Assembly: GCF_013912005.1 (NCBI RefSeq)
Contig: NZ_JACESB010000009.1
Location: 1 to 64,000, forward strand
DNA length: 64,000 nt
Direction of reading: 5' to 3'
Source of the DNA: Brevundimonas sp.
GTDB lineage: Bacteria; Pseudomonadota; Alphaproteobacteria; Caulobacterales; Caulobacteraceae
The notes below the pieces were generated by a model that was given only the letters and a program-made list of their open reading frames with translations, ran no database searches and was not told the origin of the DNA. Position 1 is the stretch's first letter; each line of letters begins with the position of its first letter. The position numbers and the translations under genes are program-made. Shown here piece by piece: positions 19,102 through 23,334 of the stretch.

Positions 19102-20139
19102 ATGGCCCCGCTTCGCCTCCCCCGTCCGCTGCAGCAGCGCCTGAACGCCATGGCCGCCGACCTGATGTCGGCGCCGGGGCTTGAGGTGGACTTCTCGCAG
19201 CCCGCCGGCGCCGCGGCCCTGGTCCCGCCGGACTCGATCTCGTGGCGGATCTTCAAGAACCCGGTCAGCCTCTACATTGGCGGCGTCGCCGCCGTGCTGC
19301 TGGAGCTGGCCGAGCCGCGCGTCCGCTCGGGCGTGTGGGACCACACCAGCTTCCGCACCGATCCGGTCATGCGCCTGCGCCGCACGGGTCTCGCGGCCAT
19401 GGTCACCGTCTACGCCGACCGGGCCACGGCCGAACGGATGATCGCCGGCGTCAACAGGCGTCATGCGCGCATCACCGGCACGGCCGACGACGGCGCGGCC
19501 TACGCCGCTGACGACCCCGAGCTGCTGGACTGGGTCCAGGCCACCGCCAGCTTCGGCTTCATCGGCGCCCGCCACCGCTTCGTCGCGCCCCTGTCGCCGG
19601 CCGATCGCGACCGCGCCTGGGCCGAGGCCGCGCGGGCGGCGGCCCTCTACGGCGCGCGAAACAGCCCGGCCTCCGAGGCCGACTGGGCGCGCGCGCTCGC
19701 CGCCATGGAGCCGAAGCTCGGCCCCTCGCCGGTGCTGGGCGAGTTCCTCGCCATCATGCGCGGCGCCCCCGCCCTGCCCTCCGCCGGCCGCCTCGCCCAG
19801 CCGCTGCTGATCCGCGCCGCCGTCGACCTGCTGCCGGAGCGGCTGCAGTCGAAGCTGGGGCTGGCGGGACAGGGCCTGTCGCCGCTGGAACGCCCCCTCG
19901 TCCGCGCCCTCGGCGCCGCCGCGGACCGCCTCGTGCTGGACAGCGCCCCGCCGGCGCAGGCCTGCGTGCGGATGGGCCTGCCGGCGGACTGGCTGTATCA
20001 AGAACGGGAGTCGTCTGCCGGCGGGGGGTGCGGATTGACGCTACAGCGCCGAAGCCCCACTCTCCCTGCATGGCTCGCTACACGGTCACCGCAGTCTGGG
20101 ACGCCGATGCTGGCGTCTACTGGTCGCAGAGCGACATAG
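19102..20139 (+). CDS. DUF2236 (MpaB-like) protein with an abnormal C-terminal extension
   Basis: The N-terminal 295 residues match the DUF2236 oxygenase-like family. Marks are LVPPDSISWRIFKNPVSLYIGGVAAVLLELAEPRVRSGVWDH, FRTDP and DPELLDWVQATASFGF. These motifs include conserved histidine and arginine residues thought to hold heme. Family members normally end near GLPADWLY. Here the frame continues for about 46 more residues of low-complexity composition and overlaps the DUF1902 antitoxin gene by 70 bp. The original stop has probably been lost at the edge of an inserted segment. The enzymatic substrate is unknown. Confidence 0.8.
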   Translation: MAPLRLPRPLQQRLNAMAADLMSAPGLEVDFSQPAGAAALVPPDSISWRIFKNPVSLYIGGVAAVLLELAEPRVRSGVWDHTSFRTDPVMRLRRTGLAAMVTVYADRATAERMIAGVNRRHARITGTADDGAAYAADDPELLDWVQATASFGFIGARHRFVAPLSPADRDRAWAEAARAAALYGARNSPASEADWARALAAMEPKLGPSPVLGEFLAIMRGAPALPSAGRLAQPLLIRAAVDLLPERLQSKLGLAGQGLSPLERPLVRALGAAADRLVLDSAPPAQACVRMGLPADWLYQERESSAGGGCGLTLQRRSPTLPAWLATRSPQSGTPMLASTGRRAT

Positions 20140-20282
20140 TCGGCCTGAACGTCGAGGCGGCGACCCTGAGCGAGTTTGTCGATCTCGTCGAGACGCTGGC
20201 TCCGGAACTGATGCGCGACAACGGTGTGGAGCCGGGGCCGGTCACCATCACAGGCGAGACGGCGCTGAAGGCCGCGTCCTGA
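20070..20282 (+). CDS. DUF1902 (HicB-like) antitoxin
   Basis: The 70-residue protein carries the DUF1902 pattern ARYTVTAVWDADAGVYWSQSDIVGLNVEAATLSEFVDLVE and PELMRDNG, a partial RNase-H-like fold used by HicB-type antitoxins. It lies 3 bp upstream of a HicA gene, so the pair is a type II toxin-antitoxin module with the antitoxin first. I take the ATG at 20070. A TTGACG hexamer at 20035-20040 could be the -35 of a promoter with a near-leaderless message; the -10 is weak. No C-terminal DNA-binding domain is present. Confidence 0.82.
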   Translation: MARYTVTAVWDADAGVYWSQSDIVGLNVEAATLSEFVDLVETLAPELMRDNGVEPGPVTITGETALKAAS

Positions 20283-20285
20283 GTC

Positions 20286-20480
20286 GTGCCCAAGGACTTC
20301 TATCCGGAGCTCGAGCGACGCTTGCGCGACGCCGGATGCCGGTTCGTCCGCCCCGGCAAGGGCAGCCATGAAATCTGGTTCAGCCCGGCGACCGGCCGGA
20401 CCTTCGCCGTCCCCCGCACGAAGAGCCGGCACATGGCCAACCAGATCCTGAAGGACGCAGGGCTGCCGAAGGCTTTCTGA
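20286..20480 (+). CDS. HicA-type mRNA interferase toxin
   Basis: The 64-residue protein has the HicA double-stranded-RNA-binding fold. The catalytic histidine is His28 in PGKGSHEIWFSP, followed by PRTKSRHMANQILKDAGL. HicA toxins cleave mRNA and tmRNA when free of their antitoxin. The start is GTG, 3 bp after the antitoxin stop, so expression is coupled. The stop is followed directly by a palindromic repeat (20480-20507) that may end transcription. Confidence 0.87.
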   Translation: MPKDFYPELERRLRDAGCRFVRPGKGSHEIWFSPATGRTFAVPRTKSRHMANQILKDAGLPKAF

Positions 20481-21283: not shown

Positions 21284-21985
21284 TCAGGCGGCGGCGCTGA
21301 CCGAGCCCTCGGCCGGGTCGCGCAGGACGTAGCCGCGGCCCCAGACGGTCTCGATGTAGTGCTTGCCGCCGGCGGCGGTGGCCAGCTTCTTGCGCAGCTT
21401 GCAGATGAAGACGTCGATGATCTTCAGCTCGGGCTCGTCCATGCCGCCGTACAGGTGGTTGAGGAACATCTCCTTGGTCAGGGTCGTGCCCTTGCGCAGG
21501 GAGAGGAGCTCCAGCATCTGGTACTCCTTGCCGGTCAGGTGGACGCGGTGGCCGTTCACCTCGACGGTCTTGGCGTCCAGGTTCACCGCGATCTCGCCGG
21601 TGTGGATGATCGCCTGGGCGTGGCCCTTGGAGCGGCGCACCACGGCGTGGGTGCGGGCGATCAGCTCGTCCTTGTGGAACGGCTTGGTCATGTAGTCGTC
21701 GGCGCCGCCGCCGAAGGTCTTGACCTTGGTTTCGATCTCCGAGGTGCCCGAGAGGATCATCACCGGGGTGTTGACCTTGCCGACGCGCAGCTGGCGCAGC
21801 ACCTCGAGGCCGTTCATGTCGGGCAGGTTCAGGTCGAGCAGGATCAGGTCGTAGTCATAGATCTTGCCGAGGTCGATGCCTTCCTCGCCCAGGTCCGTCG
21901 TATAGACGTTGAAGCCTTCCGACTTCAGCATCAGCTCGATGCTCTGCGCGGTCGCGTGGTCGTCTTCGATAAGCAGGACGCGCAT
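21284..21985 (-). CDS. ctrA: Cell-cycle master regulator CtrA
   Basis: This is an OmpR-type response regulator of 233 residues. The receiver has Asp8, Asp9 and the phosphoacceptor Asp51 in [13 protein letters not shown]. The winged helix at about 130-225 includes [32 protein letters not shown] and [15 protein letters not shown]. The sequence is near-identical to CtrA of Caulobacter, which controls DNA replication, division and flagellar genes after phosphorylation through CckA and ChpT. The C-terminal alanines (SVSAAA) fit the ClpXP degron of CtrA. GGAGGGG precedes the ATG. The upstream region holds GTTAAC and GANTC boxes, consistent with autoregulation and CcrM control. Confidence 0.98.
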
Positions 21986-22018
21986 CGTTGCCCCTCCAGG
22001 CAGAGCTTGGCTTTAGTC

Positions 22019-22042
22019 GTTACTGCCCCGTTTCGGGGTAAC
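22019..22042 (-). promoter_or_regulatory. Hairpin in the ctrA leader
   Basis: Outer arms GTTAC/GTAAC and an inner CCCG-ttt-CGGG stem form a hairpin about 34-57 nt upstream of the ctrA ATG, inside the expected 5' leader. It may influence message stability. No protein partner is implied by the sequence. Confidence 0.35.
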
Positions 22043-22053
22043 CTTGTTCTAGG

Positions 22054-22098
22054 GTTAACCCTCCAAAAACTTAAGAAGGGTTAACGCGACTGGTTAAC
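22054..22098. promoter_or_regulatory. Three GTTAAC boxes upstream of ctrA (probable CtrA sites)
   Basis: GTTAAC occurs at 22054-22059, 22080-22085 and 22093-22098, spaced by 26 and 13 bp. A further TTAA is at 22071-22074. CtrA recognises TTAA-containing boxes, classically TTAA-N7-TTAA and TTAACC half-sites, so these are the likely autoregulatory and shared sites for the divergent genes. The spacings here are N6 and N9, not exactly N7. Confidence 0.65.
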
Positions 22099-22101
22099 GG
22101 C

Positions 22102-22144
22102 GAATCTAGGCTGATTTGCGAATCGCCGTCGAGAGTCCGGAGTC
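22102..22144. promoter_or_regulatory. Cluster of four GANTC (CcrM methylation) sites
   Basis: GAATC is at 22102-22106 and 22120-22124, and GAGTC at 22133-22137 and 22140-22144. CcrM methylates GANTC in Caulobacterales. In C. crescentus one ctrA promoter is controlled by methylation at such a site. Four sites in 43 bp is far above chance for this base composition. Confidence 0.75.
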
Positions 22145-22258
22145 AAGCGACGGAACTTTTTCCGGCCCGCCACCGCCCTGCGTCCGAAACAGACGCATCG
22201 CAGGAACATATTCCTATCGTCGCCGGACGGGCGATGCGAGCGGCGAGGGAGCTGGGAG

Positions 22259-22615
22259 ATGATGACGAGGCCGTGGCTGGCGGAGGCGCAGCGCGACAGG
22301 GTGCGCGCGCGGATGGCGCTGCAGATCGTGGCCGTGTCCACCGGCGTGGCCGTGGAGACGATGATGCGCGGCACACGGCTGGACGGCCGCGCCTGCCGCG
22401 CGCGCTGGCTGGCGATGTACCTGGCTCACGTGGCCTTCGGCTGGTCGCTGGAGCGCGTCGGTTTCGCCTTCGGCATGAACCGGACCACGGCCGCGGCGGC
22501 GTGCCGCTGGGCCGAGGACGGCCGCGACCGGCCGATCCTCGACGCCCTGCTCGACCGGCTCGAGCGCTGCGTGCGCGAGGTGCTGGAGGCGCCGGCCTGC
22601 GAGCTGGGAGGGTGA
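22259..22615 (+). CDS. DnaA-domain-IV-like helix-turn-helix protein
   Basis: The 118-residue protein resembles the DNA-binding C-terminal domain of DnaA. The stretch WSLERVGFAFGMNRTTAAAACRWAED parallels the DnaA pattern in which a SLxEIGxxFGxRDHTTVxxAC helix contacts the DnaA box, with N-R-T-T in place of the usual R-D-H-T-T. An amphipathic helix (RMALQIVAVSTGVAVETMMRG) precedes it. No ATPase domain is present. It is divergent from ctrA across a shared 273-bp region and overlaps the next gene by GTGA, so it is probably cell-cycle controlled. Whether it binds DnaA boxes is unknown. Confidence 0.75.
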   Translation: MMTRPWLAEAQRDRVRARMALQIVAVSTGVAVETMMRGTRLDGRACRARWLAMYLAHVAFGWSLERVGFAFGMNRTTAAAACRWAEDGRDRPILDALLDRLERCVREVLEAPACELGG

Positions 22616-23334
22616 CCGCCGCGCGGACCCTGGCCTTCGCGCGCCGGGTGCTCGCCGCCCCGAGCGGCTGGATCGAGGCAGCGGGGGACCGCTATGTCCT
22701 GCGCACCGGCCCCGATCGGCGCTCGCGGGTTCTCGGCAGCATCGACGAGGCCGCCTTCCGGCGGCTGATCGAGAGCCCGGGCCTGCGCGTCCGCCCGGCC
22801 GGCGGATGGATGATCCGCCAACTTCCGGTCGGGGCCGGCGACTCCGCCCCGGCTCCGGGCCGGCCCGGCATGGTGGAGGGAAGCCGCCCGGTGATGGAGC
22901 CGGACGCCGGGCTGGTCCTGCGCCGGGCCAACCTGACCCAGACGCCGGTCGCCTGGCTGGCTCGCCGCTGCGGGCCCGACGGCCGCCCCTGGCTGGAGCC
23001 GATCCACGTCGCCGCCGCGATGCGCCTCGACGCCGACGTCGAGCAGGCGATGCGGGGACCGCACCTGACCCTGCGCTGGGACGCCCTGCCGCGGACGCGG
23101 GCGGGCGGCTTGGGCCGGCGGGGCGGCCCCGGGGAGACGGCCCTCGCCGCCGCCCGCCGCGTCGAGGCGGCGCTGGCCGCCTGCGGTCCCGCACGGGCCA
23201 TGGTCGACCGCATCTGCGTCCGCGCCACCGCCCTGGAGGCGGCCGAGCGCGACCTCGGCCTGCGCCGCCGCACCGGCAAGCTGCTGCTCCGTCAGGGGCT
23301 GGAGGCGCTGGCCCGTCACTATCGCCTGGGGTGA
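22612..23334 (+). CDS. DUF6456-domain protein
   Basis: The 240-residue protein begins with GTG overlapping the upstream TGA, with GGGAGG just before, so the two genes are coupled. The C-terminal half matches DUF6456: LARRCGPDGRPWLEPIHVAAAMRLDADVEQAM, then DRICVRATALEAAERDLGLRRRTGKLLLRQGLEALARHYRLG. The end looks like a helix-turn-helix similar to those of sigma-like or DnaA-like DNA-binding proteins. The N-terminal part is helical and basic. It is commonly found in Alphaproteobacteria near replication or cell-cycle genes, but the function is not established. Confidence 0.7.
   Translation: MTAARTLAFARRVLAAPSGWIEAAGDRYVLRTGPDRRSRVLGSIDEAAFRRLIESPGLRVRPAGGWMIRQLPVGAGDSAPAPGRPGMVEGSRPVMEPDAGLVLRRANLTQTPVAWLARRCGPDGRPWLEPIHVAAAMRLDADVEQAMRGPHLTLRWDALPRTRAGGLGRRGGPGETALAAARRVEAALAACGPARAMVDRICVRATALEAAERDLGLRRRTGKLLLRQGLEALARHYRLG

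What the first reader, a model, noticed from the sequence alone, without database searches (positions are those of the whole stretch)
22019..22144. Dense cell-cycle regulatory block upstream of ctrA: three GTTAAC boxes on a 13-bp spacing and four GANTC sites in 43 bp
Seen directly: GTTAAC at 22054, 22080 and 22093 (distances 26 and 13), plus GANTC at 22102, 22120, 22133 and 22140. By rough base frequencies, one GANTC is expected every few hundred bases here. Known: CcrM methylation and CtrA autoregulation control ctrA in Caulobacter. Inference: this block couples ctrA and the divergent DnaA-like gene to methylation state. The 13/26-bp pattern differs from the classical TTAA-N7-TTAA and might mark a different helical arrangement.
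Basis: partly seen in the sequence, partly recalled or inferred. Interest (0 to 1): 0.7.

Follow-up and report, generated by a model that had tools for sequence, protein, structure and literature searches.

The report
Multi-GANTC version of ctrA promoter
The marked stretch is the control region of the master cell-cycle gene ctrA in a Brevundimonas bacterium: the same two-promoter switch known from Caulobacter, but with several methylation sites instead of one and without the self-repression site seen in the model species.

Summary
In detail: all seven motifs are in place, and the four GANTC form the window's only such cluster. The block is the ctrA P1/P2 promoter region of a Brevundimonas species. 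The GANTC sites fall near -49, -42, -29 and -11 of the predicted P1 start; four or more lie upstream of the CtrA pair in 63 of 69 distinct Brevundimonas-type promoters. GTTAAC at 22093 is in 6 of 69. Coupling to the divergent DnaA-like gene is not supported: it was found beside ctrA only in Brevundimonas, while the P1 core was found in 56 of 60 sequences of other genera. Two points look new: extra P1 GANTC sites, often one inside the predicted -10, and absence of Caulobacter's -14 CtrA half-site from all 68 Brevundimonas cores scored. Mechanism is inferred from C. crescentus; nothing was tested experimentally.

The parts
21284..21985 (-). ctrA, response regulator (233 aa)
   Evidence: NF045991 CtrA equivalog 415.8 bits, cut-off 350; Response_reg + Trans_reg_C
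22140..22144 (.). GANTC #1, about -49 of predicted P1 start, inside the conserved TTGACTC
   Evidence: TTGACTC in 64 of 69 (L011 is counted as a miss only because its block is displaced)
22133..22137 (.). GANTC #2, about -42 of predicted P1 start; less constant in position across the genus
   Evidence: upstream GANTC offsets relative to the core are tabulated
22127..22132 (-). predicted P1 -35 hexamer TCGACG (most other genera read TTG there)
   Evidence: inference; TCGACGCC or TCGACGGC before the core in 53 of 69 core sites; other genera
22120..22124 (.). GANTC #3, about -29 of predicted P1 start, in the spacer; start of the core GATTCGCAAATCA; the only one of the four fitting the GcrA extended motif YGAKTCK
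   Evidence: exact core in 67 of 69; GANTC here in 68 of 68 Brevundimonas cores and 49 of 56 cores of other genera; YGAKTCK in 66 of 69 core sites
22102..22108 (-). predicted P1 -10 element TAGATT (22108-22103) overlapping GANTC #4 (22102-22106, about -11)
   Evidence: GANTC at this position in 53 of 68 Brevundimonas cores and 31 of 56 cores of other genera; the -10 assignment is inference
22093..22098 (.). extra GTTAAC over the predicted P1 start (about -3 to +3); mostly an addition of the window's clade
   Evidence: GTTAAC in 6 of 69, TTAA in 9 of 69; distribution on the tree
22071..22084 (-). CtrA site TTAACCCTTCTTAA (TTAA-N6-TTAA) of P2, about +12 to +25 of P1
   Evidence: 69 of 69; same spacing as C. 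crescentus P2 (PMC3751295); one of 7 TTAA-N4..11-TTAA sites in the 2.89-Mb assembly
22054..22059 (.). third TTAA (GTTAAC), 26 bp from the first half of the pair, about -13 of predicted P2 start
   Evidence: 69 of 69 at 25-27 bp
22037..22049 (-). conserved GAACAAGGTTACC around the predicted P2 start (about 22045)
   Evidence: conserved columns; function unknown
22259..22615 (+). divergent small protein with a DnaA domain-IV HTH; judged not part of the block
   Evidence: PF08299 32.3 bits, cut-off 31.5; found beside ctrA only in Brevundimonas

Best explanation
The block is the ctrA promoter region, read on the minus strand. An upstream P1 promoter (about 22132-22095) is the GcrA/CcrM-dependent early promoter, and a downstream P2 promoter is switched on by CtrA itself at TTAA-N6-TTAA (22084-22071). 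Shown: gene identity, motif positions, strong conservation of the P1 core and the CtrA pair, and matches to the regulator families in the genome. Inferred from C. crescentus: after the fork passes, P1 becomes hemimethylated, GcrA bound at the -29 GANTC drives early transcription, CtrA accumulates and activates P2, and CcrM later re-methylates and quiets P1. In this genus P1 has extra GANTC sites upstream of the -35 and usually one inside the predicted -10. I infer that these raise GcrA occupancy and make full methylation a stronger brake on P1. The CtrA half-site at -14, through which Caulobacter P1 is thought to be self-repressed, is missing; in the window's clade a GTTAAC on the P1 start may replace it.
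For: P1 block columns average 1.60 bits against 0.83 in the chosen flank columns, Mann-Whitney p = 4e-13; 69 related, non-independent sequences; columns 22040-22070 and 21986-22004, also conserved, were left out of the flank set. Four or more GANTC within 60 bp at the ctrA P1 block in 61 of 69 loci; in about 239 kb of these loci the only other cluster is L011's own displaced P1 block. Published C. crescentus positions (GANTC at -28/-29 and TTAA at -14 of P1; CtrA pair at -39 of P2; PMC4287350, passages) put the P1 start at 22095 here, which agrees with the -35/-10 hexamers I read from the sequence (22096). C. crescentus GcrA protects ctrAP1 from -35 to +7 when fully methylated and about 12 nt over the -35 and GAnTC when hemimethylated on one strand (PMC3667746, passages). 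ctrA expression is lower in the gcrA mutant of B. subvibrioides (PMC7987155, passages). Regulator families found in the genome. In C. crescentus, promoters with GANTC outside the -35 to -10 stretch are at their lowest when those with GANTC inside it peak (PMC4287350), which fits a braking role for the extra sites.
Against: No methylation, binding or start-site data for this strain; -35, -10 and both starts are predictions. The -10 GANTC is absent from 15 of 68 Brevundimonas cores and 25 of 56 cores of other genera, so it is not obligatory. GANTC #2 and further upstream sites vary in position. The -29 GANTC itself is missing in 7 of 56 cores of other genera. In C. crescentus an unmethylatable ctrA promoter gives no abnormal phenotype (PMC3973325, passages), so the methylation input may be mild. 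B. subvibrioides GcrA showed no preference for the extended motif beyond a slight one for C before GANTC (PMC7987155).
Confidence: 0.85

Rival explanations
1. A special CtrA arrangement: three GTTAAC boxes on a 13-bp ladder form a new CtrA binding mode.
For: Three GTTAAC at 26 and 13 bp are really there, and the 26-bp member is conserved in 69 of 69.
Against: The 13-bp member is GTTAAC in 6 of 69 and TTAA in 9 of 69; one member of the window's clade, L032, lacks it at that spacing and has a TTAA 14 bp away. The conserved pair is N6. None of the other five TTAA-N4..11-TTAA sites outside this promoter has N9.
Confidence: 0.05
2. The GANTC cluster serves the divergent DnaA-like gene, or both genes.
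For: The intergenic region is shared by two divergent genes; about 115 bp lie between the last GANTC and that gene's start codon.
Against: The P1 core is conserved in genera where this gene was not found beside ctrA (0 of 60 family loci; core in 56 of 60). That test saw at most 1.2 kb upstream and used tblastn, so a distant or farther copy could be missed. The divergent side is poorly conserved apart from an AGG-N3-8-TTCC element found in 46 of 69, at 22202-22216 in the window, with no GANTC in it.
Confidence: 0.08
3. The GANTC array is mainly an occlusion site: a protein such as MucR or CtrA shields the sites from CcrM, giving local hypomethylation.
For: In C. crescentus MucR keeps some GANTC sites hypomethylated, and CtrA can do so on a synthetic promoter with GANTC overlapping CtrA boxes (PMC5172544, passages). 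GANTC #4 lies 3 bp from GTTAAC 22093.
Against: No methylation data. The -29 and -10 sites keep fixed places in the P1 core, as a promoter role predicts. MucR genes were not searched for.
Confidence: 0.12

Closest known systems
ctrA P1 promoter of Caulobacter crescentus (GcrA/CcrM-dependent)
   Same: GANTC at -29 and position relative to the CtrA pair; the core is shared with sequences of genus g37, some of which match the published layout
   Different: C. crescentus P1 is reported with one GAnTC (PMC3667746) and a CtrA half-site at -14 (PMC4287350); here four GANTC, one in the predicted -10, and no -14 half-site
ctrA P2 promoter of C. crescentus (CtrA-activated)
   Same: TTAA-N6-TTAA upstream of ctrA (PMC3751295; 69 of 69)
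   Different: the additional TTAA is 1 bp downstream of the pair in C. crescentus; that form is in 0 of 69 here, where the third TTAA starts 25-27 bp from the first
mipZ promoter of C. crescentus (GcrA target)
   Same: juxtaposed GAnTC sites in a GcrA-bound promoter (PMC3667746)
   Different: another gene, two sites rather than four

Membership tests
GcrA/CcrM-regulated ctrA P1 promoter | GANTC between -35 and -10 | tested here: met
   GANTC 22120 at about -29; 68 of 68 Brevundimonas cores; promoter positions are predicted
GcrA/CcrM-regulated ctrA P1 promoter | GcrA and CcrM present in the genome | tested here: met
   PF07750 GcrA 174.3 bits; one RAMA-domain match, 69.6 bits, taken for CcrM from recall; its methyltransferase part was not checked
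GcrA/CcrM-regulated ctrA P1 promoter | GcrA binding and methylation-dependent transcription | not testable with these tools
   no ChIP or SMRT data for this genome
C. crescentus-type P1 autorepression | CtrA half-site TTAA at -14 of P1 | tested here: not met
   0 of 68 Brevundimonas cores; 29 of 30 cores of genera g22, g30, g36, g37 have it; 0 of 26 cores of twelve other genera
CtrA-activated ctrA P2 promoter | paired TTAA half-sites with N6/N7 spacing upstream of ctrA | tested here: met
   TTAA-N6-TTAA at 22071-22084; 69 of 69
CtrA-activated ctrA P2 promoter | CtrA binding in vivo | not testable with these tools
   no ChIP data

The most novel reading that the evidence does not exclude
Across much of Caulobacteraceae the early ctrA promoter is gated by methylation inside its own -10 element plus an upstream GANTC array, and does not use direct CtrA repression at -14. 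The textbook C. crescentus P1, with one GANTC and a -14 CtrA half-site, would then be a lineage-specific version, and the window's clade has evolved a replacement CtrA half-site on the P1 start.
Probability: 0.35. Interest if true: 0.6.

Novelty: new variant of a known kind. Interest (0 to 1): 0.38.

Why it matters
The C. crescentus ctrA promoter is a standard example of replication-coupled, methylation-timed gene control. If many relatives use several GANTC sites and lack the -14 self-repression site, models built on one GANTC plus CtrA repression of P1 do not carry over to the family. Brevundimonas, for which GcrA ChIP-seq and SMRT work is published (PMC7987155), is a place to test what GANTC number and position do.

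Tried and rejected
Rejected: TTGACT at 22141-22146 as the P1 -35 (no -10-like hexamer at a usable distance, judged by eye). Rejected: the divergent gene as owner of the block (the first version had no positive control and was repeated with one). A family tree from ctrA DNA (32 rows; L170 and L184 dropped by my start/stop filter) did not resolve the backbone, and its outgroup rows did not fall together (L193, a long branch), so I cannot say whether the -14 half-site was gained in some genera or lost in others. A search for promoter words in papers listed 20 of 28 papers; none of those 20 holds GATTCGCAAATCA. One search used a badly specified pattern that cannot match the window's own site; its zero is not used. 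One search read L011 in the wrong orientation; one search printed the right one.

Selection notes: the 69 promoters are the distinct last-203-base sequences among 85 of 86 loci (L059 gave no ctrA start) and include the window itself (L002). Loci L001-L046 were given for the best ctrA matches of two searches, and L047-L086 were found through the divergent gene, so the set leans to relatives near the window, and some genomes are in both collections. A few of the records are untitled or otherwise titled MAGs (L047, L061, L063, L066, L069, L084, L086) counted as Brevundimonas-type. From other genera of the family I fetched 60 of 150 matching genomes (16 of 20 genera; the match list was cut off, so its weakest matches could not be chosen) and 20 of 40 of the order. 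In one search the core was found in 68 of 69 (L011 missed because its block is displaced) and in 56 of 60; L096 was missed by my pattern although a similar core is visible, and the core scored in L123 is doubtful. In the order-level set the pattern scored 4 of 20, probably by chance. Genera other than Brevundimonas are unnamed codes; that g37 contains Caulobacter-like sequences rests on the published C. crescentus layout.

Full report
Observation. GANTC is rare in the window (94 found, 272.8 expected from shuffles), and this is the only place in it with four within 150 bp; uniform random placement of 94 sites gives four within 43 bp in 0.2% of trials. A further TTAA at 22071-22074 was missed because it reads CTTAAG.

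What it is. The minus-strand gene is ctrA. I compared the DNA upstream of ctrA in 69 distinct Brevundimonas-type sequences, the window included, in 60 sequences from 16 other genera of the family and in 20 from the rest of the order. In sense orientation the common layout is TTGACTC - GACTC - TCGACG - GATTCGCAAATCA - CCTA(C)GATTC - variable spacer - TTAAC-N5-TTAAG - TTAA - GAACAAGGTTACC - ribosome-binding region. Columns of the P1 block average 1.60 bits against 0.83 in the chosen flanks (p = 4e-13); the flank set leaves out two other conserved stretches (22040-22070 at 1.50 bits, 21986-22004 at 1.68 bits); the CtrA pair averages 1.83 bits. The sequences are related, so these figures describe constraint and are not independent trials.

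P1. In C. crescentus the P1 GANTC lies at -28/-29 and a CtrA half-site at -14 (PMC4287350, passages). The same GANTC-AAATC core is present here, so P1 should start near 22095. Reading -35 TCGACG and -10 TAGATT with an 18-bp spacer gives 22096. The four GANTC then start at about -49, -42, -29 and -11. Only the -29 site fits the extended GcrA motif YGAKTCK, a motif whose importance was not seen in B. subvibrioides (PMC7987155, passages). GANTC at -29: 68 of 68 Brevundimonas cores and 49 of 56 of other genera. GANTC in the predicted -10: 53 of 68 and 31 of 56. Four or more GANTC in the 120 bp upstream of the CtrA pair: 63 of 69; five have three; L011 has one because its P1 block, intact, is displaced by about 120 bp of extra DNA. 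Four or more GANTC within 60 bp at the block: 61 of 69; elsewhere in the same loci (about 239 kb in all) only L011's displaced block.

The CtrA half-site at -14. It is present in 29 of 30 cores of four genera (g22, g30, g36, g37) and absent from 68 of 68 Brevundimonas cores and 26 of 26 cores of the other twelve genera sampled. Some g37 sequences match the published C. crescentus layout (GANTC to TTAA 15 bp; TTAA-N6-TTAA with TTAA 1 bp on). The paper that footprinted C. crescentus ctrAP1 states that it has one GAnTC (PMC3667746, passages); within g37, six of eleven sequences lack the -10 GANTC and five have it. So the model species appears to carry few methylation sites at P1 compared with its relatives. 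Which state is older is not settled: the ctrA tree is too weak, although g34, which branches first among family rows there, has the CTA-GATTC form without TTAA.

P2 and the spacing claim. TTAA-N6-TTAA is in 69 of 69 and matches the site described for C. crescentus P2 as TTAA-N6-TTAA with a further half-site 1 bp on (PMC3751295, passages; PMC4287350 writes it as N7). In Brevundimonas the third half-site is 25-27 bp from the first (69 of 69). The 13-bp member at 22093 is in 9 of 69 as TTAA and 6 of 69 as GTTAAC. On a ctrA tree (65 of 69 rows long enough) seven carriers lie in one clade of eight with the window, whose other member L032 has a TTAA 14 bp away instead; L009 is a separate case; L052 was not placed. 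The box covers the predicted P1 start, so CtrA there could block P1; this is inference. Seven TTAA-N4..11-TTAA sites exist in the 2.89-Mb assembly and two of them overlap here.

The divergent gene. It encodes little more than a DnaA domain-IV helix-turn-helix (PF08299, 32.3 bits, cut-off 31.5), followed by a DUF6456 gene. It was found beside ctrA in 44 of 46 Brevundimonas loci, 0 of 60 loci of other genera and 0 of 20 order loci, with ctrA itself found in all as control; at most 1.2 kb upstream was seen, and tblastn could miss a distant copy. The P1 block therefore most likely belongs to ctrA.

Mechanism. GcrA and single matches to the RAMA and DUF1153 families, taken from recall for CcrM and SciP, are encoded (among 14 control genomes RAMA and DUF1153 rang only in Caulobacter vibrioides). 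From C. crescentus: P1 is active when hemimethylated and is activated by GcrA; CtrA then represses P1 and activates P2 (PMC3751295; PMC4287350); GcrA covers -35 to +7 when P1 is fully methylated and a short stretch when hemimethylated on the plus strand (PMC3667746). ctrA has a positive log-ratio in a C. crescentus ccrM mutant, and a GANTC within 200 bp of ctrA is found in five of five species including B. subvibrioides (PMC3973325, passages). In C. crescentus, cell-cycle promoters with GANTC outside the -35 to -10 stretch are lowest at the time those with GANTC inside it are activated (PMC4287350). I infer that the extra GANTC sites strengthen the methylation brake and GcrA recruitment, and that self-repression of P1 by CtrA works differently or not at all here. 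Against a large effect: an unmethylatable C. crescentus ctrA promoter has no abnormal phenotype (PMC3973325).

Novelty. GcrA control of ctrA in Caulobacterales (predicted there across species, PMC7987155), GANTC upstream of ctrA in related species (PMC3973325) and a survey of CcrM sites upstream of cell-cycle genes in alphaproteobacteria (PMC2877005, passages) are in print. Searches for papers describing multiple GANTC at ctrA showed none in their listings or in the passages I read; of the six papers listed I read passages of four. Subscription papers and supplements were not seen. The block is a variant of a known promoter.

Noticed in passing
window 20028-20480: Adjacent small genes with DUF1902 and HicA domains, a HicAB-type toxin-antitoxin pair.
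   Followed up: no
window 22037-22049: GAACAAGGTTACC around the predicted P2 start is strongly conserved in Brevundimonas and unexplained.
   Followed up: no
window 22202-22216: AGG-N3-8-TTCC element before the divergent gene, in 46 of 69 loci; perhaps its promoter or operator.
   Followed up: partly
L011 (upstream of ctrA): About 120 bp of extra DNA with an inverted-repeat-like stretch separates an intact P1 block from P2 in one genome.
   Followed up: partly
L148, L154, L166 (upstream of ctrA): In another family of the order (f4), three of eight loci have GACTCGATTC-N8-GAGTC upstream of ctrA, a separate GANTC cluster.
   Followed up: no
window 22259-23334: DnaA domain-IV HTH protein plus DUF6456 gene, found beside ctrA only in Brevundimonas among the loci examined.
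   Followed up: partly
L084: Contig titled Bordetella MAG carries Brevundimonas-type ctrA and its neighbour; likely a binning or naming error.
   Followed up: no
control genomes: The GcrA family PF07750 also rang over its cut-off in Sulfolobus acidocaldarius.
   Followed up: no
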